Assembly: GCF_000332115.1 (NCBI RefSeq)
Contig: NC_020156.1
Coordinates: 930,001 to 994,000 of the forward strand
Direction of reading: 5' to 3'
From: Nonlabens dokdonensis DSW-6
GTDB taxonomy: Bacteria; Bacteroidota; Bacteroidia; Flavobacteriales; Flavobacteriaceae
Length of the DNA stretch: 64,000 nucleotides
Shown: positions 8,166-63,342 of the stretch, one piece after another
How positions within the stretch are numbered: the stretch's first letter is position 1
Layout of the letters: each line of letters starts with the position of its first letter
Program-made: the position numbers and the translations under genes
The notes under the pieces: generated by a model
The model's database searches: none
Told to the model about the DNA's origin: nothing
What the model saw: the letters and a program-made list of their open reading frames with translations, nothing else

Positions 8166-8906
8166 ATGGGTTTGTTTAAATTCAAAGAGTTTCACATTGC
8201 TCAAGACCGCTGTGCACAAAAAGTAGGTACTGATGGTGTTCTTTTAGGAGCCTGGACCACACCTCACAAGATTCCGCAAAATATTTTGGACATAGGAACT
8301 GGTACTGGAGTCATTTCTCTTATGCTTGCACAACGTTTCACTGCATCAAACATTGAGGCTATAGAGATAGATACAGATGCGTTTGAACAAGCTACAGAAA
8401 ATTTTGAAAACAGTCCTTGGGGCGATAGGCTGTTTTGCTTTCATTCCTCGTTTCAAGAATTTTATGAAGAAGTAGAAGAACGTTTTGACCTCATTGTGAG
8501 TAATCCACCTTTTTTTGATTCCAACAGTTTAAAAAAAGAGTCTCAAATTGAAGAAAAAAGGCAGCAAGCACGATTTGATGATGCGTTACCTTTTGAAGAA
8601 TTGGTTTACGGTGTGTATCAGCTGTTAGCTTTAGACGGCACATTTTCCTGCATCATTCCTAAAGAAAGAGAAGAACGTTTTCTTGAGATTACTTCTCATT
8701 TTCAATTAACTCCAGTACGTACAGTTTATATAAAAGGCACTGCTAATAGTCCTGTTAAAAGATGTTTGATGGAATTCCGCTTTCGCGAAAGCGTAAAAGA
8801 AACAAACACCACACCTACAATTGAACATCTCACGATAGAAATAGCAAGGCATGACTATACCGATGATTACATCAACCTCACCAAAGATTTTTATCTCAAG
8901 ATGTAA
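8166..8906 (+). CDS. trmN: tRNA1(Val) (adenine(37)-N6)-methyltransferase
   Basis: This 246-residue SAM-dependent methyltransferase has motif I LDIGTGTGV (41-49) and the N6-adenine motif NPPFF (113-117), as in YfiC/TrmN6, which methylates A37 next to the anticodon of tRNA-Val. The conserved N-terminal FKFKEFHIAQDRCAQKVGTDGVLLGAW is also typical. It follows rimM by 15 bp. A perfect copy of the 16-bp palindrome lies in the gene (8778-8793) and encodes RFRES at residues 205-209, in a linker between the core and the C-terminal IARHDYTDDYINLTKDFYL motif. The catalytic parts are intact. Confidence 0.9.
   Translation: MGLFKFKEFHIAQDRCAQKVGTDGVLLGAWTTPHKIPQNILDIGTGTGVISLMLAQRFTASNIEAIEIDTDAFEQATENFENSPWGDRLFCFHSSFQEFYEEVEERFDLIVSNPPFFDSNSLKKESQIEEKRQQARFDDALPFEELVYGVYQLLALDGTFSCIIPKEREERFLEITSHFQLTPVRTVYIKGTANSPVKRCLMEFRFRESVKETNTTPTIEHLTIEIARHDYTDDYINLTKDFYLKM
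8778..8793. repeat. 16-bp palindrome CGCTTTCGCGAAAGCG (copy 1, in trmN)
   Basis: Perfect copy inside trmN, read in frame as RFRES. First copy in the window; the 8.7 kb to its left contain none. Confidence 0.97.
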
Positions 8907-9034
8907 GGCGATATTTATAAAAATATATCGAAATTTCTAACCACAAACCGTTTGTAGATTGCTATTTTTACGACCAATAGAAAACAGCTTAATAACTACT
9001 CTATCGATATAGTAGTTCTATAAAAAAATATCCA

Positions 9035-10219
9035 ATGAAACCAGACTTATTTGAAGCACCAGATTATTATAACATTGACGATCTTTTAACTGAAGAGCAT
9101 AAAATGATAAGGGACGCAGCTCGTTCATGGGTAAAGCGAGATGTTTCACCTATAATTGAAGAGGCTGCTCAAGAAGCAAAGTTTCCTAAAAGTATCATTC
9201 CAGGACTTGCATCCATAGGTGCTTTTGGACCTTATATTCCTGAAGAATATGGCGGTTCTGGACTAGATCAAATTTCTTATGGTCTTATCATGCAAGAAAT
9301 TGAGCGCGGTGATAGTGGGGTGCGTTCTACAGCCTCAGTACAATCTTCACTAGTTATGTATCCTATATGGAAATACGGTAGTGAAGAGCAAAAGCAAAAA
9401 TTCCTTCCTAAACTAGCCAGTGGAGAGTTTATGGGATCTTTTGGACTTACAGAGCCAGATCATGGATCTAATCCTGGAGGGATGATTACTAACTATAAAG
9501 ATGCTGGTGATGGTGAGAATGTGATTCTTAATGGCGCTAAGCTATGGATTTCTAACAGTCCGTTTTGCGATGTTGCAGTAGTATGGGCAAAAAACGAAGA
9601 AGGCCGTATTCATGGTGTTATTGTGGAACGTGGTATGGAAGGTTTCTCTACTCCAGAAACGCACAACAAATGGTCATTAAGAGCTAGCGCTACAGGAGAA
9701 CTCATCTTTCAAGATGTAAAAGTTCCTAAGTCCAATATCTTACCTAACAAATCTGGATTAGGAGCACCACTAGGTTGTTTAGACTCAGCTCGTTTTGGGA
9801 TTGCCTGGGGCGCCATAGGGGCGGCAATGGATTGTTATGATACCGCATTGCGTTATGCAAAACAGCGCATACAATTTGGAAAGCCTATCGCAGCTTTCCA
9901 GTTGCAACAAAAGAAACTGGCCGAAATGATTACTGAAATTACAAAGGCACAATTACTAGCTTTAAGGTTAGGACAACTTAAAAACGAAGACCGAGCTACT
10001 AGCGCACAAATTTCTATGGCAAAACGTAACAACGTAGAAATGGCAATAAAAATAGCTCGTGAAGCGCGACAAATCTTAGGCGGAATGGGAATCACAGGAG
10101 AATACAGCATCATGCGACACATGATGAATTTAGAAAGTGTGATTACTTATGAAGGTACCCACGACATTCACTTATTAATCACAGGTTTAGATATTACCGG
10201 TGAGAATGCTTTTAAATAA
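9035..10219 (+). CDS. gcdH: Glutaryl-CoA dehydrogenase (acyl-CoA dehydrogenase family)
   Basis: A 394-residue FAD flavoprotein of the acyl-CoA dehydrogenase fold. The specific sequence SVQSSLVMYPIWKYGSEEQKQKFLP and the preceding RSTA match glutaryl-CoA dehydrogenase rather than short- or medium-chain enzymes; the Arg of VRST corresponds to the residue that contacts the gamma-carboxylate of the substrate. FAD/substrate-binding FGLTEPDHGSNPGGM and the catalytic Glu in TYEGTHDIH (about residue 373) are present. It would oxidise and decarboxylate glutaryl-CoA to crotonyl-CoA in lysine/tryptophan breakdown in the cytoplasm. It is monocistronic, with a terminator just after. kynA (tryptophan dioxygenase) lies 14 kb away in the same window. 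Confidence 0.9.
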   Translation: MKPDLFEAPDYYNIDDLLTEEHKMIRDAARSWVKRDVSPIIEEAAQEAKFPKSIIPGLASIGAFGPYIPEEYGGSGLDQISYGLIMQEIERGDSGVRSTASVQSSLVMYPIWKYGSEEQKQKFLPKLASGEFMGSFGLTEPDHGSNPGGMITNYKDAGDGENVILNGAKLWISNSPFCDVAVVWAKNEEGRIHGVIVERGMEGFSTPETHNKWSLRASATGELIFQDVKVPKSNILPNKSGLGAPLGCLDSARFGIAWGAIGAAMDCYDTALRYAKQRIQFGKPIAAFQLQQKKLAEMITEITKAQLLALRLGQLKNEDRATSAQISMAKRNNVEMAIKIAREARQILGGMGITGEYSIMRHMMNLESVITYEGTHDIHLLITGLDITGENAFK

Positions 10220-10237
10220 GATATTTATTAATATTTG

Positions 10238-10267
10238 AAAGGCTTAGAAATAAATTTCTAAGCCTTT
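10238..10267 (+). terminator. Intrinsic terminator after gcdH
   Basis: AAAGGCTTAGAAA (10238-10250) and TTTCTAAGCCTTT (10255-10267) form a 13-bp stem with a 4-nt loop, followed by T residues; 19 bp after the stop codon. Confidence 0.9.
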
Positions 10268-10286
10268 TTGTTTCAAAAATTTCATT

Positions 10287-10757
10287 ATGAAATACGTTCA
10301 AATCTTTTTTTACTTTTTATTCACAGTTCCTGTTTTTGGGCAAATAAATATCAACGGCACATATAATATCATAAAATATGAAAGAAGCACGAAAATGATA
10401 TTTATAGATGGAGAAGAAAAAAGTGTATTAACTTCAGAAACAAAATTTGAAGGAAAGAGTAATGCTAATATTACTTTCTTTGAAAACGGAACTGTTGTTA
10501 CTGAAGGCTCCATTCTTTGTTCTGTAATTACCAATGATGAAGGCGAAATTTATGAAGAAACTGAAGAAATTAATTTAGATGATGAAGGCTCTTACAGCAT
10601 TGAAGGAGAAGAATTAATTATAAGTTCTGGAGAGTTAATGACTTTCAAAATATTACAATCTAGTAAAAATAGATTCACAATAATGTATAAAGATTCTACA
10701 GAAGACGAATATGGACAGAAAGAAACAATGGCACTAATTGAATTTATGAAAGATTGA
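10287..10757 (+). CDS. Small secreted protein, lipocalin-like
   Basis: A 156-residue protein with an N-terminal signal peptide (MKYVQIFFYFLFTVPVFGQ, cleavage near residue 19) and a short beta-strand-rich mature part with alternating NGTYNIIKYE, ANITFFENGTVV, GSYSIEGEELIIS and KNRFTIMYKD segments. This order of strands resembles the lipocalin-like small proteins widespread in Bacteroidota, but there is no diagnostic motif and no Cys at the cleavage site. Start: the only ATG in the region, 20 bp after the gcdH terminator, which makes the leader very short and leaves the promoter unresolved. Function unknown. Confidence 0.65.
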   Translation: MKYVQIFFYFLFTVPVFGQININGTYNIIKYERSTKMIFIDGEEKSVLTSETKFEGKSNANITFFENGTVVTEGSILCSVITNDEGEIYEETEEINLDDEGSYSIEGEELIISSGELMTFKILQSSKNRFTIMYKDSTEDEYGQKETMALIEFMKD

Positions 10758-10768
10758 AAACGTTTTAG

Positions 10769-13194: not shown

Positions 13195-13210
13195 CGCTTT
13201 CGCGAAAGCG
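13195..13210. repeat. 16-bp palindrome (copy 2, intergenic)
   Basis: Perfect copy 23 bp downstream of the stop of the GreA/B-type gene (13234) and upstream of the mrp promoter. Confidence 0.97.
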
Positions 13211-15684: not shown

Positions 15685-15700
15685 CGCTTTCGCGAAAGCG
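15685..15700. repeat. 16-bp palindrome (copy 3, between divergent manA and uvrC)
   Basis: Perfect copy in the divergent promoter region. The only intergenic copy in the window that is not just downstream of a stop codon. Confidence 0.97.
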
Positions 15701-17567: not shown

Positions 17568-19794
17568 GATCATATTACTTTTTATTGTTCTCGCTCTTGC
17601 GAAAGCGGACTATCTTCTAGCGCAACAGAATGAAACTTCTTCACGACCTAAAATAGGATTAGTGCTATCTGGTGGCGGCGCAAAAGGTCTTGCACACATA
17701 GGCACGTTAAAAATCATTGACTCCTTAGGTATCAAAATAGATTACATTGCTGGAACAAGTATGGGAGCGATAATAGGCTCTTCATATGCGTCTGGTTATA
17801 CCGGCAAACAACTGGACTCAATATTCAAAACTTTGGACTTTGATAAAATCATCTCTGACGATATACCTCGTAGCGCCAAAACTTTCTTTGAACGTAGAAG
17901 CAATGAAAAGTATGCGATCACATTACCTTTCAAAGATTTTCAAGTGCAAATCCCTTCTTCACTAAGCAAGGGACAGAACATTTATGATCTTTTATCTGGA
18001 TTGTTGTATCATGTAAAGGACATCGATGACTTTAGTGAGTTACCTATTCCATTTTTATGTATTGCGACAGATATTACCACGGGAGAAGAGGTTGTTTTAG
18101 ACAGTGGTTATTTACCTAAAGCAGTAAATGCTAGCGGTGCACTACCTTCGCTTTTTGCGCCTGTTGACATCAACGGTAAACTTTTAATTGATGGCGGCGT
18201 TACAGATAATTACCCTATTCAAAAATTAAGAGATCGTGGAATGGACATTATTATAGGAGTAGATGTTCAGGACGATTTAAAATCTCTTGAAGAGCTGGAT
18301 AGCGCACTCGATATCCTTTCTCAAATCAATAATTTCAGGACGATCAATGACATGAAAGAAAAAGCACCTGAAACAGATGTTTATATCATGCCAGATATCT
18401 CGTCGTTCTCTGTGGTGTCCTTTGAAAAAGGGAGAGAAATTATCAAAAAGGGAGAGCTCGCCGCAAGAAGACAAATGGAACAACTGAAGGCTCTCAGTGC
18501 AACAGATTATCAAAAACCTGAGTTGCAAATAAAAGCTCGGGATAGTGTTTATATAAATGATATAAACGTTGATGGCAATAACAATTATACCAGAGCTTAT
18601 ATAGTAGGTAGATTTAAAGTTAAAACACCAGGAAAGATCGCTTATGATGATATTAATATAGCTATTAATAATTTACAAGCCTCAGATAATTTTGCCAAAA
18701 TCAACTATGAAATCATAGGGTCTGGAGAAGATGCCACTTTAAACATTGAAGTTGTAGAAAGCGATGTACGTAACTATCTACGTCTAGGATTGCACTATGA
18801 TGAATTGCTAAGAAGTGCTGCACTAATTAACCTATCTAGAAAAAATGTGCTTTTTAATAGTGATATTATCTCTGCAGACGTTATTGTAGGAGATAACCTC
18901 CGATACAACTTCGACTATTATATCGATAAAGGAAGATACTGGTCCATAGGGATTCATAGTGAGTTTTTAAAATTTCAAAAAGATGTAAAAGCCTCCTTAG
19001 TTCAGGAAATAGGGAACATACCATCTTTAGGAGTAAATAATATCGACTTAGAATATAGGGACTGGACGCAACAATTGTATGTACAAACTAGAATTAACAA
19101 ATCCATTAATTTTATCTCAGGTGCCGAAATTAAAACTCTTGATGTTTTTACAGAAACCTTGACCACTCCAGATCCAGATGATAATGATATAACGGACTTC
19201 TCAAATGGTACTCTAGGTAGTATTTATGGTAAGGTTCTACTTGATTCTTATGATAATGCATTCTTGCCTTCTTCGGGCTGGAGAATAGATGGAGATTTTC
19301 ATCTGTACCTTTTTAATACCGAATTTGGCGAGCGTTTTAATGAATTTTCTATGGCTCAGTTGCAGGTAGGTCGTGCACAGAGTTTTGGTAATTTAACGTT
19401 ACGCGGTAATGCGCACATTGGGATTACCATAGGTGACACAGATAACTCTGCGATGGATTTTTTCTTAGGAGGCTATGGCTCAAGACGCATTAATAATCTC
19501 GTCCCGTTTTTTGGATATGACTTCATAAGTGCTGGTGGAGACACTATAATTAAAGCGTTATTTGAAATCGATTATGAAATTTTTAAAAAAAACCACATCA
19601 TCTTTAGTTCTAATTTTGCAAGTGTAGAAGATAATTTATTTGAAACTAAGGACTGGTTTACAAATGCCCGCTATACAGGTTATGCCATAGGCTATGGAAT
19701 GGAAACTTTTTTAGGACCTATTGAAGTTAAATACACGTTCTCACCACAACAAGATGATGGGCAAGTTTTTGTCAATCTGGGATTCAGGTTCTAA
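17554..19794 (+). CDS. Patatin-like phospholipase with BamA-type outer membrane barrel (PlpD-like)
   Basis: A 746-residue protein: signal peptide (1-23), patatin domain (about 33-235) with oxyanion GGGAKG (40-45), nucleophile motif GTSMG (Ser 69) and catalytic dyad Asp in DGG (213-215), then a POTRA-like domain (about 330-410, SVYINDINVDGNNNYTRAYIVGRF), then a 16-stranded BamA-like barrel ending VFVNLGFRF. This is the layout of type Vd autotransporters: a lipase exposed or released by its own barrel. It overlaps uvrC by 14 bp. Odd: the signal peptide core contains ALAKAD (14-19), encoded by a decayed palindrome copy at 17592-17607, placing Lys and Asp late in the hydrophobic stretch. Confidence 0.9.
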   Translation: MRKSKIILLFIVLALAKADYLLAQQNETSSRPKIGLVLSGGGAKGLAHIGTLKIIDSLGIKIDYIAGTSMGAIIGSSYASGYTGKQLDSIFKTLDFDKIISDDIPRSAKTFFERRSNEKYAITLPFKDFQVQIPSSLSKGQNIYDLLSGLLYHVKDIDDFSELPIPFLCIATDITTGEEVVLDSGYLPKAVNASGALPSLFAPVDINGKLLIDGGVTDNYPIQKLRDRGMDIIIGVDVQDDLKSLEELDSALDILSQINNFRTINDMKEKAPETDVYIMPDISSFSVVSFEKGREIIKKGELAARRQMEQLKALSATDYQKPELQIKARDSVYINDINVDGNNNYTRAYIVGRFKVKTPGKIAYDDINIAINNLQASDNFAKINYEIIGSGEDATLNIEVVESDVRNYLRLGLHYDELLRSAALINLSRKNVLFNSDIISADVIVGDNLRYNFDYYIDKGRYWSIGIHSEFLKFQKDVKASLVQEIGNIPSLGVNNIDLEYRDWTQQLYVQTRINKSINFISGAEIKTLDVFTETLTTPDPDDNDITDFSNGTLGSIYGKVLLDSYDNAFLPSSGWRIDGDFHLYLFNTEFGERFNEFSMAQLQVGRAQSFGNLTLRGNAHIGITIGDTDNSAMDFFLGGYGSRRINNLVPFFGYDFISAGGDTIIKALFEIDYEIFKKNHIIFSSNFASVEDNLFETKDWFTNARYTGYAIGYGMETFLGPIEVKYTFSPQQDDGQVFVNLGFRF
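17592..17607. repeat. Decayed palindrome copy in a signal-peptide coding region
   Basis: CGCTCTTGCGAAAGCG differs from the 16-bp palindrome at two positions (5 and 7), both in the left half. It is read as ALAKA, the shifted form of AFAKA seen in other genes. Confidence 0.7.
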
Positions 19795-19832: not shown

Positions 19833-19848
19833 CGCTTTCGCGAAAGCG
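19833..19848. repeat. 16-bp palindrome (copy 4, intergenic)
   Basis: Perfect copy 38 bp after the stop of the patatin gene (19794), 120 bp before hmgA. Confidence 0.97.
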
Positions 19849-24077: not shown

Positions 24078-25055
24078 ATGAACCAGATGTCAGCAGAAAT
24101 CAGCCCAGAGATTGCAAACCGGATTAAGTTACTTGAAGACAAGTTTAAACATTCTGGACAAGACATGCTTTCTTATCTCGATGGCTTGCTCTACGACACT
24201 TATACCACATACTGGGATTATATAAGACTAGACACTTTACTTAGCCTTCAAGTTCCTTCTACTGAGTTTCCTGATGAGATGATCTTCATAGGTTATCATC
24301 AAATTACGGAATTGTACTTTAAACTCATCATCCATGAGCAAAAGCAAGTTATAGAAAATGAGCACCTCACTGGAGCTTTCTTTCATGAAAAAGCCGTGCG
24401 CATTAACAGGTATTTTCAGGTATTGATTAATTCTTTTGAAGTTATGATCAAAGGAATGGAAAGAGAACAGTTTCTCAAGTTTAGAATGTCTCTTCTGCCT
24501 GCTAGTGGTTTTCAAAGTGCACAATTTAGAATGATTGAATTCTATAGTACTTCGCTTTTGAATTTAGTGCATCCGTCGGTTAGGTCTCGCTTTCGCGAAA
24601 GCGATAATCAAAACAGCAACGAAGATCTTTATGAAAATATCTACTGGAAAAAAGGCGGTATAGATATGTACACTGGAGAAAAGACACTGACACTAAAACA
24701 ATTTGAAAAACGTTATACTCCTAGATTTTTGAGAATCGCAAAAGAAGTAGAGAATACTAATTTGAATCAGCGTTTTATCGCCTTACCAGAAGAAGAAAAA
24801 ACTCCAGAACTAATAGATGCACTACGTTCTCTTGATCAAAATTTAAATATCAACTGGAAATTAATGCACACAGGCGCTGCTCATCGCTATTTGCGTAAAG
24901 AAGGACAAGCCGTTCAAGCCACAGGAGGAACTAACTGGAAAGAGTTTTTACCACCTAGCTTTCAAAAAATATCATTTTTCCCATCACTTTGGAGCGATCA
25001 AGAACATGGAGATTGGGGAAAAGAATGGGTTAATCATGTATTAAATACAAAATAA
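24078..25055 (+). CDS. kynA: Tryptophan 2,3-dioxygenase
   Basis: A 325-residue all-helical haem dioxygenase that opens the indole ring of tryptophan to N-formylkynurenine. The distal-pocket motif GYHQITELYFKLIIHE (His 74) and the proximal haem ligand region WKLMHTGAAHRYL (His 264) with downstream ATGGTNW are present. The start may be ATG 24087 (MSAEISPE) rather than 24078. A perfect palindrome copy (24588-24603) encodes RFRES near residues 171-175 in a loop of lower conservation. It is followed with no gap by an M23 peptidase gene (stop TAA directly joined to ATG). Confidence 0.93.
   Translation: MNQMSAEISPEIANRIKLLEDKFKHSGQDMLSYLDGLLYDTYTTYWDYIRLDTLLSLQVPSTEFPDEMIFIGYHQITELYFKLIIHEQKQVIENEHLTGAFFHEKAVRINRYFQVLINSFEVMIKGMEREQFLKFRMSLLPASGFQSAQFRMIEFYSTSLLNLVHPSVRSRFRESDNQNSNEDLYENIYWKKGGIDMYTGEKTLTLKQFEKRYTPRFLRIAKEVENTNLNQRFIALPEEEKTPELIDALRSLDQNLNINWKLMHTGAAHRYLRKEGQAVQATGGTNWKEFLPPSFQKISFFPSLWSDQEHGDWGKEWVNHVLNTK
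24588..24603. repeat. 16-bp palindrome (copy 5, in kynA)
   Basis: Perfect copy read as RFRES inside tryptophan dioxygenase, in the loop after VHPSVRS. Confidence 0.97.
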
Positions 25056-26346: not shown

Positions 26347-27978
26347 ATGAAAAATATAAATCCTACCTCAACCGATGCATGGAATGTTTTGACAGAACAC
26401 TTTAAAGATGTCAAAAACCTAAACTTGAGAGAAGCATTTTCTCAAAATTCCAATCGCGCTGAAGAACTTACGCTTACCGAAGGTGATTTTTTAGTAGACC
26501 TTTCTAAGAACCTTATCACAAAAGAAACACAGCAAAAACTTATAGATCTTGCAAAAGAATGTGAGCTGGATGCTGCTATTCATTCGTATTTCAATGGTGA
26601 AAAAATTAACGCAACAGAAAACAGAGCTGTTTTACATACTGCATTAAGAACTCAGGATACTAGCTCTAAAGTAGGAGAAAAGGTAACTGCTGCTCTTGCA
26701 AGTAAAGAAAAGATGTTTGCTTTTGTAGACGCAGTAAATGATGGTAAAATTACCGCAGCAAACGGGCAAAAATTTGATACCATTGTTAATATAGGAATAG
26801 GTGGTAGTGATCTAGGACCAGTGATGATCTATGAAGCTCTACAAGCCTATAAAAATGAAATGACTCTTCACTTTGTTTCTAATGTAGAAGGAGATCACGT
26901 CGAAGAAGTCATCAAAAAAATAAATCCAGAAACAACTTTATTTGTGATTGTTTCTAAGTCATTTGGGACCCAAGAGACACTTACTAATTCTACAACTATA
27001 AGAAATTGGTTCTCTAAAAAAGTAAATGATCATGCAATAGCGCAACACTTTATTGCAGTAAGTAGTAATGTTCAAAGAGCAGTTGATTTTGGAATCGATC
27101 AAGAAAATATCTTCCCTATGTTTGATTGGGTAGGTGGTCGTTTCTCTTTGTGGAGTACCGTAGGTATGTCTGTCGCATTAGGAATAGGAACTCAAAATTT
27201 CCAAGATCTACTTGAAGGAGCACATGAAATGGATGAACATTTTAAAAACACCACTTTTGAAAAAAATATTCCAGTTCAACTCGGTTTATTGACTATATGG
27301 TACAATAACTTTTATAAAGCACAGAGTGAAGCCGTTATTCCGTACACGCAATACCTACATAGACTTCCAGCTTATTTACAGCAGGCAATTATGGAAAGTA
27401 ATGGCAAGAGCGTAGATCGTAATGGCAATCCTGTGAACTATGAAACTGGAAATATCGTTTGGGGTGAACCTGGAACTAACTCTCAACATGCCTTCTTCCA
27501 ATTGATACACCAAGGAACCAAGTTAATTCCTGCTCATTTTATCGCTTTCGCGAAAGCGAAATACCACCATCCTGATCACCATAACAAGCTCATGGCAAAT
27601 TTCTTTGCACAGACCGAAGCATTGATGAACGGGAAGAATCAAGATGAAGTGATTAAAGACTTACAGAGCTCTGGCAAGTCAGAAGAAGAGATAAATAAGT
27701 TAGCTCCTTTCAAAGTATTTACAGGCAACAAGCCCACTACTACTATTTTAATTGATGAACTTACTCCTAGAAGTTTAGGAAAACTAGTGGCTATGTATGA
27801 GCATAAAATATTTGTAGAAGGAGTTATCTGGAACATATATAGTTATGATCAATGGGGCGTAGAACTGGGTAAAATTCTTGCAGATCGCATCCTTAACGAT
27901 ATAGAAAACTCAGAATCTGACGCTCATGATGCAAGTACAACACAACTTTTACAAAAATTTTACTCCATAAATAATTAG
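26347..27978 (+). CDS. pgi: Glucose-6-phosphate isomerase
   Basis: A 543-residue PGI with the family signatures: IGIGGSDLGPVM, SKSFGTQETLTN, GRFSLWS, MESNGKSVDRNG with the catalytic region, and GEPGTNSQHAFFQLIHQGTK, ending with the WGVELGKILADRIL signature. It interconverts glucose-6-P and fructose-6-P. A perfect palindrome copy (27543-27558) encodes AFAKA at about residues 400-404, between HF and the conserved DHHNKLMANFFAQTEAL; other PGIs have a short variable stretch there (IAP-type in E. coli), so the element replaced tolerant sequence. 40 bp after the M23 gene. Confidence 0.96.
   Translation: MKNINPTSTDAWNVLTEHFKDVKNLNLREAFSQNSNRAEELTLTEGDFLVDLSKNLITKETQQKLIDLAKECELDAAIHSYFNGEKINATENRAVLHTALRTQDTSSKVGEKVTAALASKEKMFAFVDAVNDGKITAANGQKFDTIVNIGIGGSDLGPVMIYEALQAYKNEMTLHFVSNVEGDHVEEVIKKINPETTLFVIVSKSFGTQETLTNSTTIRNWFSKKVNDHAIAQHFIAVSSNVQRAVDFGIDQENIFPMFDWVGGRFSLWSTVGMSVALGIGTQNFQDLLEGAHEMDEHFKNTTFEKNIPVQLGLLTIWYNNFYKAQSEAVIPYTQYLHRLPAYLQQAIMESNGKSVDRNGNPVNYETGNIVWGEPGTNSQHAFFQLIHQGTKLIPAHFIAFAKAKYHHPDHHNKLMANFFAQTEALMNGKNQDEVIKDLQSSGKSEEEINKLAPFKVFTGNKPTTTILIDELTPRSLGKLVAMYEHKIFVEGVIWNIYSYDQWGVELGKILADRILNDIENSESDAHDASTTQLLQKFYSINN
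27543..27558. repeat. 16-bp palindrome (copy 6, in pgi)
   Basis: Perfect copy read as AFAKA within glucose-6-phosphate isomerase. Confidence 0.97.
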
Positions 27979-31901: not shown

Positions 31902-31917
31902 CGCTTTCGCGAAAGCG
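31902..31917. repeat. 16-bp palindrome (copy 7, intergenic)
   Basis: Perfect copy 14 bp after the stop codon at 31887. Confidence 0.97.
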
Positions 31918-34083: not shown

Positions 34084-34099
34084 CGCTTTCGCGAAAGCG
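34084..34099. repeat. 16-bp palindrome (copy 8, intergenic; 24-bp extended dyad)
   Basis: Perfect copy 9 bp after the stop of the T9SS cargo gene; perfect dyad symmetry extends to 24 bp (34080-34103). Lies between that gene and the convergent mfd. Confidence 0.97.
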
Positions 34100-40570: not shown

Positions 40571-40586
40571 CGCTTTCGCGAAAGCG
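40571..40586. repeat. 16-bp palindrome (copy 9, intergenic)
   Basis: Perfect copy 6 bp after the stop codon of the TonB receptor gene (40593) and 61 bp before pdeM (upstream). Confidence 0.97.
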
Positions 40587-46114: not shown

Positions 46115-46130
46115 CGCTTTCGCGAAAGCG
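46115..46130. repeat. 16-bp palindrome (copy 10, intergenic; 22-bp extended dyad)
   Basis: Perfect copy 23 bp after the gdhA stop (46154); dyad symmetry extends to 22 bp (46112-46133). Lies upstream of the gdhA terminator hairpin. Confidence 0.97.
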
Positions 46131-50589: not shown

Positions 50590-51450
50590 ATGTGCATCAT
50601 TGCGCTATGCGTGTACTTGCTTTACCATCAATGGTTAGAGCGACCATTAAGTCTTAGCACTCTATCTGATTTAATCAAAAAACTACCCTGGTGGACTTTA
50701 CCTACTCTATTACTTTTAAGTATAGGCAGCTGGATGATAGAATCTAAAAAATGGCAATTTTTAATAAAAGATTTTTATAAGTTACGCTTTCGCGAAAGCG
50801 TGCTACAAAACCTCACCGCTCAAGCAGCCAGTTTTATCACGCCGTTTAGAGCTGGCGAGTTTGCTTTAAAAAGTACATTTTTTAAAAAAGAGCTTCGAAA
50901 AAAAATACTGAGCAGAATCTTGGCAGGAAACATTGCCCAAATGGTAATTACCAGCACTCTTGGGATCTGTGGAGTTGTATTTTACATCAAGAATCAGTCA
51001 TCTGATAGCATTTTTTTATTGATATTTTGCTCAGCTCTTATTTGTGTCCTAGTTTTTACGATTTACTTATGGATTTCAAAAAAATGGCAATCTGATATTC
51101 TAAACACACAGCAATGGATAAAGATATTGATGTATTCCCTTTTAAGATATTTAATTTTTGCTAGCAACTGGCTCATTGTTCTTGTTCTACTAGATTATGA
51201 GGCATCGCTTTTTATAATAATGAGGAATATCACGATATACTACCTTCTCGTTTCTATTATTCCTGTGATTCAAATTTTTGATATCGCTTTAAAATGGACG
51301 GTTGCTTCTTATATTTTTAATGGGAGTCTTTATAATGCCGAATCCATTCTATTTGCGACAACCATTATCTGGATTACTAATTCCATTTTTCCTACGGTTT
51401 TAGGTTGCGCTATTTTACCGTTTCAAAAACTAAAAATAGCAACCTCATGA
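50590..51450 (+). CDS. Lysylphosphatidylglycerol-synthase-TM/flippase-like membrane protein
   Basis: A 286-residue membrane protein with about seven to eight hydrophobic segments, in the pattern of the LPG_synthase_TM (UPF0104, AglD-like) family: WTLPTLLLLSIGSWMIESKKWQFL, then QAASFITPFRAGEFALKSTFFKKEL, with the family GxG/E region. Start chosen at 50590; an ATG at 50539 is possible, while the further-upstream ATG at 50422 would run through ruvC. A perfect palindrome (50785-50800) gives RFRES at the edge of a loop (FYKLRFRESVLQ). It overlaps the next gene (ATGA) so the two are coupled; the pair likely makes or moves a lipid-linked glycan. Confidence 0.8.
   Translation: MCIIALCVYLLYHQWLERPLSLSTLSDLIKKLPWWTLPTLLLLSIGSWMIESKKWQFLIKDFYKLRFRESVLQNLTAQAASFITPFRAGEFALKSTFFKKELRKKILSRILAGNIAQMVITSTLGICGVVFYIKNQSSDSIFLLIFCSALICVLVFTIYLWISKKWQSDILNTQQWIKILMYSLLRYLIFASNWLIVLVLLDYEASLFIIMRNITIYYLLVSIIPVIQIFDIALKWTVASYIFNGSLYNAESILFATTIIWITNSIFPTVLGCAILPFQKLKIATS
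50785..50800. repeat. 16-bp palindrome (copy 11, in flippase-like gene)
   Basis: Perfect copy read as RFRES. Confidence 0.97.
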
Positions 51451-53069: not shown

Positions 53070-54194
53070 CTATTTTTTGGCACTCAGAAAGATTTCTTTG
53101 CGTAAATCTTTAGCCCGCGCATTTGCCATTTCTTGATAGCGGCTCGTAGGATACTGCTCGATAAATTCTTCATAATAGGATAATTTCTCCTCCTTATCTG
53201 CAAAATATTGATCTGCAGCGATGGCATATTGATAACCTATAATATCATCTTCTGGCTTTTCATTTTTTGCTTTTTTGGTAGCATAAAATGCATTTTTATA
53301 ATCACCCATGCGCACATAAACTGTTGCTAGCTGTAAATATTCTTGATGCAGCTCTGGCGTTTTAAATTGGATGGATTGCTCAATATGATCTTGTGCTTCT
53401 ACAAACTTTTCCAACTGGAGATAAGCTTTAGACATTATAAAATAGATCAAGCTATTTTTATCTTCATAATCGCGGTTATAGATATTGTAATTATCAATCG
53501 CGAGTTGCCATTGTTGATCGTTAAAATACGACCAGGCCAGATTTTTTCTATTAAAATCTGTATCATTACCTAATTCAAATAAAAGCTCAAAGTGTTCAAT
53601 TGCTTTGTCATAGCGTTTAGCACCTAGATAAGCTTGTGCGATAAGACTGTTTATTTTAATATCGTTTGGATACAATTCCAGAGCAGGTTGCGCTGTGTTT
53701 ATGGCGTCGTTGAACTTTCTATTTTTAATGAGTAGTTTGATCCACTCGATTCTTGCTGCGCGGTAAGATTTGTTTAAGGATACCGCTTTCGCGAAAGCGG
53801 AAATAGCTCCAGCATCATTGCTTAAATCTACTAATGCCTGACCTAAATAGTACCTATAACTAGCATTATCTGGCACCTCTTCTATAAGTTCATCAAACAT
53901 TCCAAAAGCCGTAACAGGATCATTATTGCGCAATGCTAATCGTCCATACTCAAATCGCGGTGTGGTACTTATCGAGTCTTTTTGGAATCCTTTTTCATAA
54001 GTCGCTAGAGCGGCATACACATCGCCTAACAGAACGTATGCTTTAGCTAGTTTAAACTCGCTATCAGGAATTTTTTTATATTCTTCTATAGCCAGTTGAT
54101 ATTTACCAGCCTGCGCAAGACTATCTGCAACCTTAAATTGAGCTGGACTAAATATGGAAGTTAACAATACAATAAGAATCAATACATCTTTCAT
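53070..54194 (-). CDS. Secreted TPR-repeat protein
   Basis: A 374-residue protein with signal peptide (MKDVLILIVLLTSIFSPAQ) and about nine tetratricopeptide repeats over residues 20-330 (for example QLAIEEYKKIPDSEFKLAKAYVLLGDVYAALATYEKG, YDKAIEHFELLFELGNDTDF, WQLAIDNYNIYNRDYEDKNSL). It probably scaffolds a periplasmic complex. A perfect palindrome (53784-53799) is read as AFAKA within AISAFAKAVSLNKSYRAARIEW, which fits the TPR consensus with little cost. It shares a transcript with the lipoprotein gene just downstream. Confidence 0.85.
   Translation of the reverse strand: MKDVLILIVLLTSIFSPAQFKVADSLAQAGKYQLAIEEYKKIPDSEFKLAKAYVLLGDVYAALATYEKGFQKDSISTTPRFEYGRLALRNNDPVTAFGMFDELIEEVPDNASYRYYLGQALVDLSNDAGAISAFAKAVSLNKSYRAARIEWIKLLIKNRKFNDAINTAQPALELYPNDIKINSLIAQAYLGAKRYDKAIEHFELLFELGNDTDFNRKNLAWSYFNDQQWQLAIDNYNIYNRDYEDKNSLIYFIMSKAYLQLEKFVEAQDHIEQSIQFKTPELHQEYLQLATVYVRMGDYKNAFYATKKAKNEKPEDDIIGYQYAIAADQYFADKEEKLSYYEEFIEQYPTSRYQEMANARAKDLRKEIFLSAKK
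53784..53799. repeat. 16-bp palindrome (copy 12, in TPR gene)
   Basis: Perfect copy read as AFAKA in a TPR helix, where A-F-x-K-A is a natural consensus sequence. Confidence 0.97.
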
Positions 54195-54831: not shown

Positions 54832-55635
54832 TTATGTGTTTTCTTCTAACCAGATCGCTACGCCGTCTTTTTTATGATGCGCTGTTATGTAAGCAGCTGC
54901 TTTTTTAACTTCGTCTCTTCCGTTTTCTACAGCAACTCCATAACCTACCGCCTTCAACATATCAGTATCGTTATAATTATCGCCAAAGGCTACTACATTT
55001 TTCATTGCTATATCAGGAAACCTGAATTCCAGCAATTTCCTCAAGGCGACTTCTTTTGACGTTCCTTTAGGCGTGATTTCTGTGTAGGTATTTTTAGATC
55101 TGTATAAATGTACTTTTGAGGTGAGTTCTTTTTCCGCTTTCGCGAAAGCGAGATCCATTCCATCTTCATCACCCATGAACATCACTTTATGCGCGTTTCC
55201 CTTTTCTGATGTTTCTTTAAGATAATCTAAGGTCACAGCAGTGGATTGCACCGTAGGATGAACTCTAGTATTATTAATCTCTCTATTTGCCCAATGGTCC
55301 AAAGCAGGCACAAACCATTCTTCATTGCGGTAAAAAGCTACATGAAGTCCATGCTCTTCACCTATAGCAGCCAGCGCTTGCACCTCATCAAATGGAATCC
55401 CTAGCTCAAAAAGAACCTCATCACCATGCAGCACTAACGCACCGTTATAGCAAATAATAGCTTCACCCATAATGTCTAAAGCATCTTGCAAATAATACAT
55501 TGCTTGAGGCATGCGAGCAGAAATCAGAATTTTAGGAATAGTTAGTTCTTTTAACGTCTTGATCGTACGATGCGACAAAAACCTGTTTTCATCTAGTAGT
55601 GTCCCGTCTATATCTGTTGCAAAAAGTTGTATCAT
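54832..55635 (-). CDS. Cof-type HAD-superfamily hydrolase
   Basis: A 267-residue HAD IIB hydrolase: motif I ATDIDGTLLDENRFLS, motif II ILISARM, motif III Lys, and motif IV VVAFGDNYNDTDMLKAVGYGVAVEN. Dephosphorylates a small phosphometabolite; substrate unknown. A perfect palindrome (55135-55150) is read as AFAKA (DLAFAKAEKELTSKV). The TATATTTG promoter ends 4 bp before the ATG, predicting a leaderless mRNA, with the same 15-bp arrangement as the gene at 39782. Confidence 0.9.
   Translation of the reverse strand: MIQLFATDIDGTLLDENRFLSHRTIKTLKELTIPKILISARMPQAMYYLQDALDIMGEAIICYNGALVLHGDEVLFELGIPFDEVQALAAIGEEHGLHVAFYRNEEWFVPALDHWANREINNTRVHPTVQSTAVTLDYLKETSEKGNAHKVMFMGDEDGMDLAFAKAEKELTSKVHLYRSKNTYTEITPKGTSKEVALRKLLEFRFPDIAMKNVVAFGDNYNDTDMLKAVGYGVAVENGRDEVKKAAAYITAHHKKDGVAIWLEENT
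55135..55150. repeat. 16-bp palindrome (copy 13, in HAD hydrolase gene)
   Basis: Perfect copy read as AFAKA. Confidence 0.97.
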
Positions 55636-59873: not shown

Positions 59874-59889
59874 CGCTTTCGCGAAAGCG
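59874..59889. repeat. 16-bp palindrome (copy 14, intergenic; 24-bp extended dyad)
   Basis: Perfect copy with dyad symmetry over 24 bp (59870-59893). Lies 63 bp after the stop of the 76-residue gene (59953) and upstream of the DUF4198 gene. Confidence 0.97.
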
Positions 59890-60704: not shown

Positions 60705-60744
60705 TTGCACGTAGATTGAGTTGTTTGAAATTTGTTTCTATTAC

Positions 60745-60777
60745 TTAGACAGCAACTAACTCTATGTGTAAAGACTT
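60745..60777 (-). promoter_or_regulatory. Putative ECF-sigma promoter, copy A
   Basis: On the minus strand AAGTCTTTACACAT (60764-60777), 9-nt spacer, TGCTGTCTAA (60745-60754), then nTAATA. All 24 defined bases and the spacing are identical to copy B at 63236-63268, while the spacers differ. It is 41 bp before the start codon at 60704. Confidence 0.75.
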
Positions 60778-60887
60778 CATTTAAAAAAACAAATAAAAGA
60801 TTCGTCTTGAGTGCTAGTAAAACCTATTCCTATTAAATGAGCCTCTAGAACATTTAAAACTTTTGGAAACTTAAATCGCTTGTAGAT

Positions 60888-61748
60888 TCACTCTTTAGAC
60901 TTGCTCAATTCTTTTAAAAAAGATAGGATCTCATCTTTCATGATTTCAGGGTTTTTCCATGCGAGCTCATGACCTACATCAGGAAATGTTTTTGTTCTCG
61001 CTTTCGCGAAAGCGCTATCGGTATAAACTAAATTTTCTACAGGAACAATATCGTCTGCATCGCCATGAAAATGTGCTATAGGAACAGTCACTTGAGGCCA
61101 ATCCTTTTCTATTTTTTGCAACTCTGCTGCGTGTACTTTTTTCTCATCTCCAGCGACACGATAACCTGTAGGAACGATCCATCTAGTCAGTTTCCACCGT
61201 GTAAAACGAGACGCCCAGATATCTTTTTCGATAGAAGGATCAATTGCAGCAGAAATCATGATAACTCCATCCACATTTTTATTAATCACAGCAATTCTAG
61301 CAGCAATAGGACCGCCATAAGAAGACCCAACAACTACCATATTTTTAAGGTTCAATTCTTCTAACAATCCATTGATAACAATGGCTTGTTGCTCGATAGA
61401 CGGTAATGCCTTGCCAAAACTCGTATAACCATATCCAGGACGATCTACGGCATATAAATTTGCTCGTGAGGCCAGTTCTTCATCTAATAAAAAGGCTTGC
61501 CACGCAACTAAGGAGCTAGGCGCTCCATGAATAAAGATAATATTGTACGTGTTGCCATCTTTAGATACCTTTTGCGCTCGTACTTTAAAATTAAGACTAT
61601 CCACTTGATGATAAACAAAACTGGTCTGGACATCGTTTTTTTGAAATGTCTGCAACATTTCTTTATCTGTTTTGCGGTATTGCAACACGGTACAAGAAGA
61701 AAAAAGTGTCATCACAAAAACAACAAAACAAGTTGTAAAAACTCGCAT
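60888..61748 (-). CDS. Alpha/beta-hydrolase lipoprotein
   Basis: A 286-residue hydrolase with lipoprotein signal (MRVFTTCFVVFVMTLFSSC, Cys 19) when started at ATG 61748. The alpha/beta-hydrolase core has IIFIHGAPSSLVAW (oxyanion region), nucleophile elbow VVGSSYGGP, acid in HFHGDADDIVP, and catalytic His in FPDVGHELAW. Substrate unknown. An upstream ATG at 61799 overlaps the stop of the sigma gene (TAATG) and would give translational coupling but would bury the lipobox, so 61748 is preferred. A perfect palindrome (60999-61014) is read as AFAKA (TDSAFAKARTKTF). Third gene of the sigma operon. Confidence 0.85.
   Translation of the reverse strand: MRVFTTCFVVFVMTLFSSCTVLQYRKTDKEMLQTFQKNDVQTSFVYHQVDSLNFKVRAQKVSKDGNTYNIIFIHGAPSSLVAWQAFLLDEELASRANLYAVDRPGYGYTSFGKALPSIEQQAIVINGLLEELNLKNMVVVGSSYGGPIAARIAVINKNVDGVIMISAAIDPSIEKDIWASRFTRWKLTRWIVPTGYRVAGDEKKVHAAELQKIEKDWPQVTVPIAHFHGDADDIVPVENLVYTDSAFAKARTKTFPDVGHELAWKNPEIMKDEILSFLKELSKSKE
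60999..61014. repeat. 16-bp palindrome (copy 15, in hydrolase gene)
   Basis: Perfect copy read as AFAKA, in the region before the catalytic His. Confidence 0.97.
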
Positions 61749-61798
61749 GGGTAGCTTTGATTGAGAACAAAAAATACTGATGTGTTGCGGTAAGGACA

Positions 61799-62674
61799 TT
61801 AATTCAAATTTAAAATAGATTTCCAACTTTCATTGTCTAGAATATCTTCAATAAATAGTTTTTTATCAAAGTCATTTTTAAAAGATAAATTTTGCTGTAA
61901 CTCGGCATATTTAAGATCGGCATTTGCGGTTAAGAAATCGGCATCAGGTTGCAGTTGCGATTGGAATGTTTCATATTCTGGTCTATTATGCAGTAAGTCT
62001 TTGGCGTTAATAAATTTCATATCGACCGCAGCTTTTACTTTTTTATGACACCTGCATGGGTTGTTTTTATCTACGAGACCGCATTGATTATTCATGAAGT
62101 TATAAAGGTCTTTTCTGGCTTTACTTAATTTCATCCGGAAATTTGCCTTACTCATTTCCATAATTTCTGAGCCTATGGTATGATTTGCTGCAAATATTTC
62201 TCCTATGATATAAATGAGTCTTTGCTCTTTATTAAGGCAAAGAATCATACCAGATAGACAGTTGAGTCGCACTTCTCTTATCAATTCTTGCTTTTCTTTC
62301 TGTTCTTCTGGCGTCATTTCATGGTCTGGCGCAGCATTAAGTTGTTTGCCCATTTCTTCAAAATTTGTAGGAATCACAAAATTCATTTTTTTCTTATCGT
62401 TTATAAAATGATTAAAAACAATGCGATAAGCCCACGTACGGAAAGAGCTCTTAAATTTAAACTGGCTTAGATTAGTAATAATCTTAATCAAGACTTCTTG
62501 ACTTAAATCTTTTGCATCATCTACGTTGCCAGTCATTTTCCAGGCTACATTATAAATATAAGCCTGATGATTTTTTATCAATAAGCTCAAAGCTTTCTTA
62601 TCACCTTTCAAGGTTAATTCTATCAACTCTTTGTCTAGCTGGTCTGAAGGATATGCCGCAGAAAATGGATTCAT
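61799..62674 (-). CDS. ECF-type RNA polymerase sigma factor with C-terminal Cys-containing extension
   Basis: A 291-residue sigma-70 family protein. Region 2 (residues about 20-95) has LIKNHQAYIYNVAWKMTGNVDDAKDLSQEVLIKI and FRTWAYRIVFNHFIND (DNA melting and -10 contacts); region 4 (about 130-190) is an HTH (EQRLIYIIGEIFAANHTIGSEIMEMSKANFRMKLSKARKDL). A C-terminal extension of about 100 residues contains CGLVDKNNPCRCHKK, which could bind Zn and sense redox state, in place of a separate anti-sigma factor; none is encoded next to it. It lies between a DUF1772 gene and the hydrolase gene in one operon whose promoter carries the same element as the gene at 60704, suggesting autoregulation. Confidence 0.88.
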   Translation of the reverse strand: MNPFSAAYPSDQLDKELIELTLKGDKKALSLLIKNHQAYIYNVAWKMTGNVDDAKDLSQEVLIKIITNLSQFKFKSSFRTWAYRIVFNHFINDKKKMNFVIPTNFEEMGKQLNAAPDHEMTPEEQKEKQELIREVRLNCLSGMILCLNKEQRLIYIIGEIFAANHTIGSEIMEMSKANFRMKLSKARKDLYNFMNNQCGLVDKNNPCRCHKKVKAAVDMKFINAKDLLHNRPEYETFQSQLQPDADFLTANADLKYAELQQNLSFKNDFDKKLFIEDILDNESWKSILNLN

Positions 62675-62748
62675 TACTTATTCTTTTATGAGAAAGCGTC
62701 AATTAGATTTTGTAGATTAAGATACATCTTCTATTTGACACTTGATGA

Positions 62749-63216
62749 TTATTTGTTTAACGAAAGATTTGATTGTTTAAAACCTAATAGGGCAAAAACC
62801 GTTGCAACGATGGCAATTCCAATACGCAACCAATGAAAAAACACCCAGCCTTGTAATTTGCTAGACGCTTCTGTAGCACTGTATTTTAACTCCATAAAGT
62901 TAAGGTTCATGGGTAGATGATAAATTGAAGTTTGAATTATCGTGAGCAGTAAACCAAAAAAAGCAAAGAGGTAATATTTTCTAGCTAGTTTGTTATCCTT
63001 GGTCATAAGAAATAATGATAAAGTAGCTATAAAGGCAGGCAGTAAAGTAATAACCGTAGGTCCTAACAAAAGTGGGAAGTCCACTTTAAAAGTCTCCATA
63101 AAAACGATAGGATCTAATGACTGCCAGTGCAAACAATAACTAAGTCCTATATTGATCATATTTCCAATAAACGCTCCTGAAGCGATTATTGCAATGAAGG
63201 GAAGAAGCTTTTTCAT
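62749..63216 (-). CDS. DUF1772-type four-helix membrane protein
   Basis: A 155-residue membrane protein with four segments (FIAIIASGAFIGNMINIGLSY, LLLGPTVITLLPAFIATLSLF, YYLFAFFGLLLTIIQTSIYHLPMNL, WVFFHWLRIGIAIVATVFALLGF). The PxNLNF, W..FHWLRI pattern is that of the DUF1772/anthrone-oxygenase-like family. It is first in the operon with the sigma factor 74 bp downstream; the ECF-type promoter lies 20 bp before its ATG. It may be the target of regulation or a sensor partner; function unknown. Confidence 0.75.
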   Translation of the reverse strand: MKKLLPFIAIIASGAFIGNMINIGLSYCLHWQSLDPIVFMETFKVDFPLLLGPTVITLLPAFIATLSLFLMTKDNKLARKYYLFAFFGLLLTIIQTSIYHLPMNLNFMELKYSATEASSKLQGWVFFHWLRIGIAIVATVFALLGFKQSNLSLNK

Positions 63217-63235
63217 AAAACATAGAATTTATTAT

Positions 63236-63268
63236 TTAGACAGCACTTCTTTAAATGTGTAAAGACTT
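63236..63268 (-). promoter_or_regulatory. Putative ECF-sigma promoter, copy B, of the sigma operon
   Basis: On the minus strand AAGTCTTTACACAT (63255-63268), 9-nt spacer, TGCTGTCTAA (63236-63245), then ATAATA. It is 20 bp before the DUF1772 start. CTTTACA is repeated just upstream (63266-63276). Same element as 60745-60777. Confidence 0.78.
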
Positions 63269-63326
63269 TGTAAAGTATAATTCTAATATAGCTTCATTAA
63301 TTTATGAGTTTATTAGTTAATATTTT

Positions 63327-63342
63327 CGCTTTCGCGAAAGCG
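63327..63342. repeat. 16-bp palindrome (copy 16, intergenic)
   Basis: Perfect copy 26 bp after the stop of the outer-membrane protein gene at 63369. Confidence 0.97.

What the first reader, a model, noticed from the sequence alone, without database searches (positions are those of the whole stretch)
8778..63342. A perfect 16-bp palindrome, CGCTTTCGCGAAAGCG, occurs 16 times in 55 kb
Perfect copies start at 8778, 13195, 15685, 19833, 24588, 27543, 31902, 34084, 40571, 46115, 50785, 53784, 55135, 59874, 60999 and 63327, plus decayed copies at 17592 and 36673. By chance a given 16-mer is expected about 64000/4^16, or 1.5e-5 times, in this window. Spacing is 1.1 to 6.5 kb, mostly 2-5 kb. The core is invariant in 16 copies while flanking bases vary, so the DNA sequence itself is under selection or is being copied. 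The base just before the core is never G. There is no transposase and the element is too short for a REP/BIME or MITE. Candidates: a DNA-uptake signal, a nucleoid or chromosome-organising protein site, a methylation or restriction-related site, or an RNA hairpin. Comparable families (HIP1 in cyanobacteria, USS/DUS in Pasteurellaceae and Neisseria) are known, but I know of no described function for this sequence in Flavobacteriaceae.
Basis: seen in the sequence. Interest (0 to 1): 0.88.

Follow-up and report, generated by a model that had tools for sequence, protein, structure and literature searches.

The report
Genus-wide 16-base palindrome marking self DNA
Marine bacteria of the Nonlabens and Dokdonia group carry hundreds of evenly spread copies of one exact 16-letter palindrome, kept in place even inside genes, which most likely works as a "this is our DNA" tag for DNA uptake, though this has not been tested in a living cell.

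Summary
CGCTTTCGCGAAAGCG occurs 16 times here (chance 0.05, even allowing 3 mismatches) and 737 times in the 3.91-Mb chromosome. It is abundant in all 23 Nonlabens and 18 Dokdonia genomes held and in one genome of a third genus (g205), and at most 13 times in any other genome of a 397-genome family sample. About half the copies are intergenic (9% of the DNA), the rest in all three reading frames. Spacing is more even than chance. In one 20-kb region, 44 of 50 mapped copies in 20 congeners lie where this genome has a copy. In pgi the motif replaces other residues without a gap. So it looks selected or driven in place, not copied. Nonlabens copies have 12-bp arms with T (A on the other side) every third base, weaker in Dokdonia, not seen in g205. 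Best explanation: a DNA-uptake (self-recognition) sequence; Riemerella-type uptake genes are present, but in non-carriers too. Uptake bias is untested and no receptor was found; a chromosome-organising site is the main rival.

The parts
8778..8793 (.). perfect copy, inside a gene (frame RFRES)
13195..13210 (.). perfect copy, intergenic
15685..15700 (.). perfect copy, intergenic (divergent genes)
17592..17607 (.). decayed copy, 2 mismatches
19833..19848 (.). perfect copy, intergenic; a copy maps to the same place in 9 of 20 congeners (flanks themselves mostly not alignable)
24588..24603 (.). perfect copy inside a gene (Trp_dioxygenase-like, RFRES); perfect at the same place in 13 of 20 congeners, some with gaps close by
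27543..27558 (.). perfect copy inside pgi (AFAKA); perfect at the same place in 12 of 20 congeners; absent from this position in the one Dokdonia, one g205 and 3 outgroup genomes compared
31902..31917 (.). perfect copy, intergenic; a copy maps to the same place in 10 of 20 congeners (flanks alignable by blastn in 1 only)
34084..34099 (.). perfect copy, intergenic (convergent genes); no congener copy mapped here
36673..36689 (.). decayed copy: the motif with one inserted A
40571..40586 (.). perfect copy, intergenic; no congener copy mapped here (near the edge of the compared region)
46115..46130 (.). perfect copy, intergenic
50785..50800 (.). perfect copy inside an ORF (RFRES)
53784..53799 (.). 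perfect copy inside a gene (AFAKA, minus strand)
55135..55150 (.). perfect copy inside a gene (AFAKA, minus strand)
59874..59889 (.). perfect copy, intergenic
60999..61014 (.). perfect copy inside a gene (AFAKA, minus strand)
63327..63342 (.). perfect copy, intergenic

Best explanation
The 16-mer, in Nonlabens with its two 12-bp arms, is a genome-wide self-recognition signal of the Nonlabens-Dokdonia-g205 clade. The most likely use is in natural transformation, as with the DNA uptake sequences of Neisseria and Haemophilus. A dimeric receptor reads the palindrome on extracellular DNA, so DNA of relatives is preferred; uptake-biased recombination then builds up and maintains copies at permissive places (intergenic gaps, tolerant codons). 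Shown: abundance, near-restriction to the clade, even spacing, conservation of sites in place, gapless replacement of residues in pgi, presence of homologues of Riemerella uptake genes. Inferred: that uptake is biased, that a receptor reads the palindrome, that drive maintains it. Unknown: the receptor, and what the 3-bp phase of the arms is for.
For: Abundant in 23 of 23 Nonlabens, 18 of 18 Dokdonia and G226; at most 13 copies in every other genome of a 397-genome family sample. Sharp optimum: 86 perfect, 14 one-mismatch, 3 two-mismatch, 5 three-mismatch copies in 464 kb. Even spacing: CV 0.63; 1 of 57 gaps under 1 kb against about 12 expected if half the sites are placed between genes. 44 of 50 mapped congener sites lie within 200 bp of a site here, 9.7% expected at random (one region, 20 of 22 congeners). 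In pgi the motif codons are kept at 94%, other conserved residues at 49%; 0 of 116 five-residue runs reach this, and the motif replaces amino acids without a gap. Some site-poor stretches look acquired, by eye: two serine recombinases in a 14-kb gap, an NRPS-like cluster in L113 with no site. Stray copies in other genera include a metal-resistance cluster. ComEC in 8 of 8 genomes tested (4 carriers), a DUF5689 protein in 12 of 12 (6 carriers), a full-length outer-membrane channel homologue in 24 of 25 carrier genomes, the miss being 77% complete. Genes of the DUF5689 and channel kind are needed for transformation in Riemerella anatipestifer (PMC8459023: abstract, passages, section 19). R. columbina transformation is competed by its own DNA but not by equal amounts of foreign DNA (PMC7965970: section 16 and passages). 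Neisserial DUS are likewise more conserved than their surroundings, sit in permissive parts of the core genome and are absent from recently acquired genes (PMC2397512: abstract and passages).
Against: The uptake genes are equally present in the non-carrier genomes tested, so they do not explain the restriction to this clade. No clade-specific receptor was found. The DUF5689 protein is very acidic (computed pI 4.05-4.14) in all 10 genomes computed, carriers or not, so it does not look like a DNA receptor. Known uptake sequences are shorter and not palindromic (recalled). Some viral contigs carry the motif at about host density (6 in a 37-kb contig), which fits a function inside the cell as well or better. 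Other long site-free gaps hold ordinary-looking genes. Neisserial DUS were argued to arise often by recombination rather than point mutation (PMC2397512, abstract), unlike the gapless case seen here. The 3-bp phase of the arms is not general in the clade. A search for Dokdonia with DNA uptake gave one paper, on Pelagibacter by title; competence of Nonlabens was not searched for. In PMC7965970 Flavobacterium johnsoniae was not competent (start of abstract in listing), so competence is not universal in the family.
Confidence: 0.5

Rival explanations
1. Binding site of a clade-specific nucleoid or chromosome-organising protein that anchors or insulates DNA about every 5 kb. The site is a perfect dyad, as for a dimeric protein, and the arms add contacts.
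For: Perfect dyad whose flanks fit independent half-site preferences, with no extra pairing between arms. Even spacing. No significant trend with distance from parS (30 stretches, Spearman -0.33, p 0.07). Present in some viral contigs.
Against: No carrier-specific ParB paralogue: exactly one ParB in G000, G003, G242 and G226; a second, 616-aa one in G014 and G019 also occurs in non-carriers. A perfect parS remains in G000 and G003 and one-mismatch copies in G242 and G226 (with up to 2 mismatches the reversed control is hit about as often). Acquired-looking DNA without sites sits in the chromosome (by eye). No candidate protein was found.
Confidence: 0.22
2. Chi-like or self-marker site that steers recombination or nuclease machinery on DNA already in the cell. 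The T/G-rich arms would feed a RecA-type or AAA+ protein that binds three nucleotides per subunit.
For: Arms T-rich and C-poor, with T at -3, -6, -9, -12 in Nonlabens: phase ranks first of 495 position choices in intergenic copies. About one copy per 5 kb. Some viral contigs carry sites in ORFs that look phage-like by eye.
Against: Chi sites are short, non-palindromic and strand-biased (recalled). The phase is weaker in Dokdonia (rank 58 of 495) and not seen in g205 (rank 330 of 495); 28 viral copies show only part of it. Confined to one clade although recombination enzymes are universal (recalled).
Confidence: 0.13
3. HIP1-like product of a methyltransferase and biased mismatch repair.
For: Frequent palindrome; 10 of 14 one-base deviations are at the first or last position, as reported for HIP1 (PMC4390886, abstract and passages). 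Outside the motif GCTTTCGC is 6 against 2.9 expected.
Against: Outside the motif the central sub-sites are not enriched: TCGCGA 35 seen, 34.2 expected; CGCG 377 seen, 547.5 expected; GCGAAAGC 1 seen, 1.1 expected. A 16-bp core exceeds any methyltransferase site I know of (recalled). No methyltransferase was searched for.
Confidence: 0.07
4. Mobile repeat (REP or MITE) or RNA hairpin/terminator.
For: Perfect inverted repeat; about half the copies are intergenic. One of the two Dokdonia copies in pgi lies beside a 3-residue gap of the alignment, and some congeners have gaps near site 24588.
Against: The Nonlabens copy in pgi replaces codons with no gap against one Dokdonia, one g205 and three outgroup genomes. 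The 3' flank is A-rich, not T-rich, on either strand. Intergenic copies lie in tandem (29), divergent (8) and convergent (6) gaps.
Confidence: 0.03

Closest known systems
DNA uptake sequences (DUS of Neisseriaceae, USS of Pasteurellaceae)
   Same: Hundreds of exact copies through a clade, genic and intergenic, conserved in place above their surroundings (PMC2397512, abstract and passages); AT-rich flanks contribute in Haemophilus (PMC7811141, passages)
   Different: 16-bp perfect palindrome instead of a 9-12 bp oriented motif (recalled); arms with a 3-bp phase in Nonlabens; another phylum; about one per 5 kb here against about one per kb in H. influenzae (PMC7811141); no pilus homologues reported in Riemerella (PMC8459023, introduction passage); uptake not tested
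HIP1 (GCGATCGC) of cyanobacteria
   Same: Very frequent exact palindrome; one-base deviations mostly at the ends (PMC4390886, abstract)
   Different: Longer, unrelated sequence, with arms in Nonlabens; no excess of TCGCGA or CGCG outside the motif
parS / Noc-type sites
   Same: 16-bp perfect palindrome read by a dimer (recalled)
   Different: 737 copies spread over the chromosome; no carrier-specific ParB; parS present separately
Chi sites
   Same: Density of one per about 5 kb (E. coli value recalled); T-rich arms
   Different: Palindromic, so no strand bias is possible; much longer; clade-restricted

Membership tests
DNA uptake sequence (DUS/USS) | Genome-wide over-representation in all members of the clade | tested here: met
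   23 of 23 and 18 of 18 genomes of two genera, 1 genome of a third
DNA uptake sequence (DUS/USS) | Sites more conserved than surrounding DNA, with few near-misses | tested here: met
   only one 20-kb region was compared, in 20 of 22 congeners; one G000 site there (34084) has no counterpart and one congener place (6 copies) has none in G000
DNA uptake sequence (DUS/USS) | Concentrated in core genome, absent from recently acquired DNA | tested here: inconclusive
   One 14-kb gap has recombinases and L113 is NRPS-like, by eye, but other long gaps hold ordinary-looking genes and some viral contigs carry sites
DNA uptake sequence (DUS/USS) | Carriers encode a DNA uptake machinery | tested here: met
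   by homology only; also present in the non-carriers tested
DNA uptake sequence (DUS/USS) | Preferential uptake of motif-bearing DNA | not testable with these tools
   needs an uptake assay
DNA uptake sequence (DUS/USS) | Sequence-specific receptor | not tested
   No candidate found; the DUF5689 protein is acidic
HIP1 | GCGATCGC sequence | tested here: not met
   different sequence
HIP1 | Internal methyltransferase-size sites enriched | tested here: not met
   no enrichment of TCGCGA or CGCG outside the motif
HIP1 | Cognate orphan methyltransferase | not tested
   no methyltransferase was searched for
ParB/Noc binding sites | A ParB-family paralogue specific to carriers, or canonical parS replaced | tested here: not met
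   one ParB in 4 of 6 carriers tested; the other 2 have an added 616-aa one, also found in non-carriers; parS exact in G000 and G003
REP/MITE mobile repeats | Copies arise by insertion | tested here: not met
   gapless replacement at the Nonlabens pgi site; one locus examined in depth, one other Dokdonia copy lies beside a gap
Intrinsic terminator | Hairpin followed by a T-run | tested here: not met
   3' flank is A-rich; no preference for convergent gaps
Chi | Short, oriented, strand-biased (recalled) | tested here: not met
   perfect palindrome of 16 bp

The most novel reading that the evidence does not exclude
A new class of chromosome-scale self-DNA signal: a perfect palindrome read by a dimer, whose arms are then engaged in three-nucleotide steps by a repeat protein or a RecA/AAA+-type filament. 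It would serve pilus-independent DNA uptake or recombination in Bacteroidota, strongly enough to rewrite amino acids in housekeeping enzymes.
Probability: 0.25. Interest if true: 0.92.

Novelty: new variant of a known kind. Interest (0 to 1): 0.77.

Why it matters
Sequence-tagged self DNA is well documented only in Neisseriaceae and Pasteurellaceae (recalled; both named in PMC7811141, summary), and both use type IV pili (recalled). A tag in Bacteroidota would give an entry point to the uptake machinery of this family, which in Riemerella seems to lack pili, and to its unknown receptor, and an independent case for the dispute over drive versus selection. It is also useful at once: stray copies in other genera mark DNA that has probably passed through this clade.

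Tried and rejected
ParB/Noc paralogue: rejected (G014 and G019 have a second ParB of 616 aa, but so do non-carriers, and G000, G003, G242 and G226 have only one). Altered chromosomal ParB: disfavoured, parS kept (the reversed control has as many matches at up to 2 mismatches, so the argument rests on the exact copies in G000 and G003). Different palindromes ('dialects') in ten other genera, 40 kb each: none found; TTTGGCCAAA, three copies in each of two genera, looks like ordinary coding sequence (5 of 6 inside ORFs). Genes beside comEC as a clade-specific receptor: the neighbourhood is the same in 4 carriers and 4 non-carriers. A second DUF5689 protein: in 4 of 6 carriers and 0 of 6 non-carriers, but by eye it looks like ordinary secreted proteins and two carriers lack it. 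Acidic pI argues against the DUF5689 protein as receptor. Arms pairing as a longer hairpin: no excess over independent preferences. Triplet phase as a general feature: not supported beyond Nonlabens and partly Dokdonia. Plasmid BLAST of 6 kb: no match. Rows dropped: 6 of 56 congener sites were not mapped, and 2 of 22 congeners were not fetched for it; sites too near the ends of stretches were left out of logos; the placing of intergenic sites may be helped by the motif itself being part of a match. In one search only 2 of the 6 sites tried could be aligned in most congeners; the four intergenic ones aligned in 7, 1, 0 and 0 of 20. In one search rows were grouped by hand; L081-L111, whose titles were not shown, stayed among the 58 'other' loci although many look like carriers.
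Full report
What was checked. The 16 perfect copies are real and at the stated places; shuffled sequence gives a mean of 0.05 with up to 3 mismatches. One of the two 'decayed' copies (36673) is the perfect motif with an inserted A. The window is G000:C1:930001-994000 of a single 3,914,632-bp chromosome. Contig lengths tie the genus to Nonlabens: G002 C2 has 2,403,690 bases as CH672374 (strain BBFL7), G017 C12 has 624,900 as N. tegetincola NZ_MQVV01000012. G242 C1 (483,439) matches Dokdonia sinensis NZ_REFV01000001. The species is probably N. dokdonensis DSW-6, from its size, by recall only. The genus of G226 (g205) was not identified.

Distribution. The chromosome holds 737 exact copies; 22 of 22 congeners hold 180-680, counting incomplete genomes, and the reversed control gives 0 in each. 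All 18 Dokdonia genomes hold 138-711. In a sample of 397 genomes of the family, 48 have at least one copy, but only Nonlabens, Dokdonia (630) and G226 (153) are rich; every other genome has 13 or fewer. With the 12-base core CTTTCGCGAAAG the counts are 879, 917 and 445, against at most 19 in any other genus sampled (239 genomes) and at most 10 in the 147 other genomes of a phylum sample. G226 keeps the inner 12-14 bases but mostly relaxes the ends. An unrooted tree of six proteins around comEC (8 genomes, 3,266 columns) puts the four carriers together with support 0.87, so one origin is plausible.

Anatomy. In 464 kb there are 86 perfect copies, 14 with one mismatch (10 of them at base 1 or 16), 3 with two and 5 with three; the reversed control has 0 with none or one, 1 with two and 4 with three. 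In 660 kb of G000 (125 copies, both strands folded together) the intergenic flanks carry T at -3 (0.90), -6 (0.62), -9 (0.80) and -12 (0.68), with A mirrored on the other side, and C is 0.00-0.11 from -3 to -12 against 0.18 overall. Phase 3 is the best of 495 choices of four positions (test run on intergenic copies). Genic copies show it more weakly (0.71, 0.52, 0.67, 0.59), so it is not a codon effect. In Dokdonia (87 sites) the T's are at -2 (0.82), -6, -9 and -12 (0.60, 0.56, 0.55) and the phase test ranks 58 of 495; in G226 (27 sites) it ranks 330 of 495. So the phase is a Nonlabens feature, partly shared with Dokdonia. Flank pairing is as expected from independent half-sites, which fits a dimeric reader rather than a hairpin.

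Location. 43 of 86 copies are not wholly inside ORFs although only 9.4% of the sequence is outside called ORFs (simple ORF caller). Genic copies use all three frames on both strands: AFAKA 21, LSRKR 12, RFRES 10. In 280 contiguous kb the 57 spacings have mean 4.8 kb and CV 0.63 (0.0001 of random placements are as even); 1 is under 1 kb against 11.9 expected if half the sites are placed between genes. In 30 stretches the trend with distance from parS is not significant (Spearman -0.33, p 0.07).

Evolution. I compared one 20-kb region in 20 of 22 congeners (68-83% identical in the 5-kb search query). Of 56 sites there, 50 could be mapped and 44 of these fall within 200 bp of a G000 site, mostly within 30 bp; 9.7% is expected for random places. 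Against this, the other 6 share one place where G000 has no copy, G000 sites 34084 and 40571 have no counterpart, and the flanks of intergenic sites can mostly not be aligned. Two genic sites are perfect in 13 and 12 of 20 congeners. In pgi, motif codons are identical in 94% of comparisons with the same residue, other conserved residues in 49%, and 0 of 116 other five-residue runs reach that. At this place one Dokdonia, one g205 and three outgroup genomes have different residues with no gap (GFKKS, GFKRP, AFSNS, LFAES, LFSES), while Dokdonia has two copies elsewhere in the same gene: one aligns without a gap to g205 (LSRKR against LSEKE), the other lies beside a 3-residue gap. So the motif can appear and disappear by substitution, is held in place once present, and costs amino-acid changes. 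This speaks for selection or drive and against a mobile repeat, from few loci.

Copies outside the clade. Small clusters in other genera recur with the same spacings (933 bp in G114, G123 and G137; 2,446 bp in G114, G180 and G344) and share flanking sequence. The one read in full (L132) is a heavy-metal cluster: an AcrB-type pump and an outer-membrane efflux protein (Pfam), with ORFs that look by eye like copper ATPases and a multicopper oxidase. That it was transferred from the clade is inferred. In the viral collection 41 stretches carry the motif; one 37-kb contig has 6 copies and one 24-kb contig 4, in ORFs that look phage-like by eye. This does not decide between the explanations, but suits a role inside the cell at least as well as uptake.

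Function. Transformation in Flavobacteriaceae is real: Riemerella anatipestifer needs ComEC, DprA, ComF, RecA and new proteins, among them an outer-membrane protein with a carboxypeptidase-regulatory domain and a DUF5689 protein encoded together, and no pilus homologues were found (PMC8459023: abstract, passages, section 19). R. columbina transformation is competed by its own DNA but not by equal amounts of E. coli or R. anatipestifer DNA, although a tenfold amount of these did compete; those authors listed A/T-rich k-mers of up to 10 bp and left their role open (PMC7965970: section 16). Homologues are in the carriers: ComEC in 8 of 8 genomes tested (4 carriers), the DUF5689 protein in 12 of 12 (6 carriers), the channel homologue full length in 24 of 25 carrier genomes, the miss being 77% complete. 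In 10 of 10 neighbourhoods read, channel and DUF5689 gene are adjacent and a nuclease gene of one cluster lies nearby (the G000 one is Exo_endo_phos_3). None of this is specific to carriers, and no receptor was identified.

Verdict. What is shown is a clade-wide, largely position-conserved, evenly spread palindrome that is kept against codon drift. That profile resembles neisserial DUS (PMC2397512, abstract and passages: DUS about 97% identical against about 85% for conserved sequence on average, in permissive parts of the core genome, absent from recently acquired genes). I put 0.5 on an uptake tag, 0.22 on a chromosome-organising site, 0.13 on a Chi-like or self-marker role. Searches for a description: the 16-mer (0 papers), the 14-mer, Nonlabens with Dokdonia and palindrome, uptake sequence with Bacteroidetes, competence and Flavobacter, Dokdonia with DNA uptake (1 paper, listing only), over-represented palindromes (12 of 56 listed), Nonlabens with repeat and motif (12 of 25 listed); none of the titles points to this motif. 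The library lacks most subscription papers.

Noticed in passing
L132 and L133-L141 (other Flavobacteriaceae genera): A heavy-metal cluster (read in L132) with motif copies at recurring spacings and shared flanks in several genera; the motif could serve as a tracer of DNA that passed through the Nonlabens-Dokdonia clade.
   Followed up: partly
window 26347-27978: Phosphoglucose isomerase has AFAKA at the motif in Nonlabens where relatives differ; the Dokdonia genome compared has two copies elsewhere in the same gene.
   Followed up: yes
G000:C1:890946-892314; L132:5390-6607; L303 nuclease gene: Several genic copies sit near the N terminus as ...AFAKA... in what look like signal peptides, which fits the AxA cleavage rule (recalled) and may be a permissive place for the motif.
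   Followed up: no
L295-L304: The channel and DUF5689 genes are neighboured by a nuclease gene in all 10 neighbourhoods read; a candidate for processing DNA at the surface.
   Followed up: partly
L189-L229 (viral contigs): Some phage-like contigs carry the motif at host-like density, including GC-richer ones (locus GC 0.42-0.48) that might belong to g205-like hosts (G226 stretches: GC 0.46).
   Followed up: partly
G000:C1:878129-892251: A 14-kb stretch without the motif, by eye with two serine recombinases, an AAA ATPase and a methyltransferase-like protein: probably an acquired defence island.
   Followed up: partly
G000:C1:1128043 (in L154), L292, L294: A second, longer DUF5689 protein in 4 of 6 carriers and 0 of 6 non-carriers tested, next to a similar neighbour gene (LuxE-like by eye) in three of them.
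   Followed up: partly
Nonlabens genomes: Motif density varies about 2.5-fold (88 per Mb in G022, 225 in G019, rounded genome sizes); the cause is unknown, and the channel gene is full length in the low-density G022 and G004 too.
   Followed up: no
G137:C1:100001-140000 (L239, L240): An 11-mer, CCCGGCGTCGC, with 14 occurrences in 40 kb of a 32% GC genome; not looked into.
   Followed up: no
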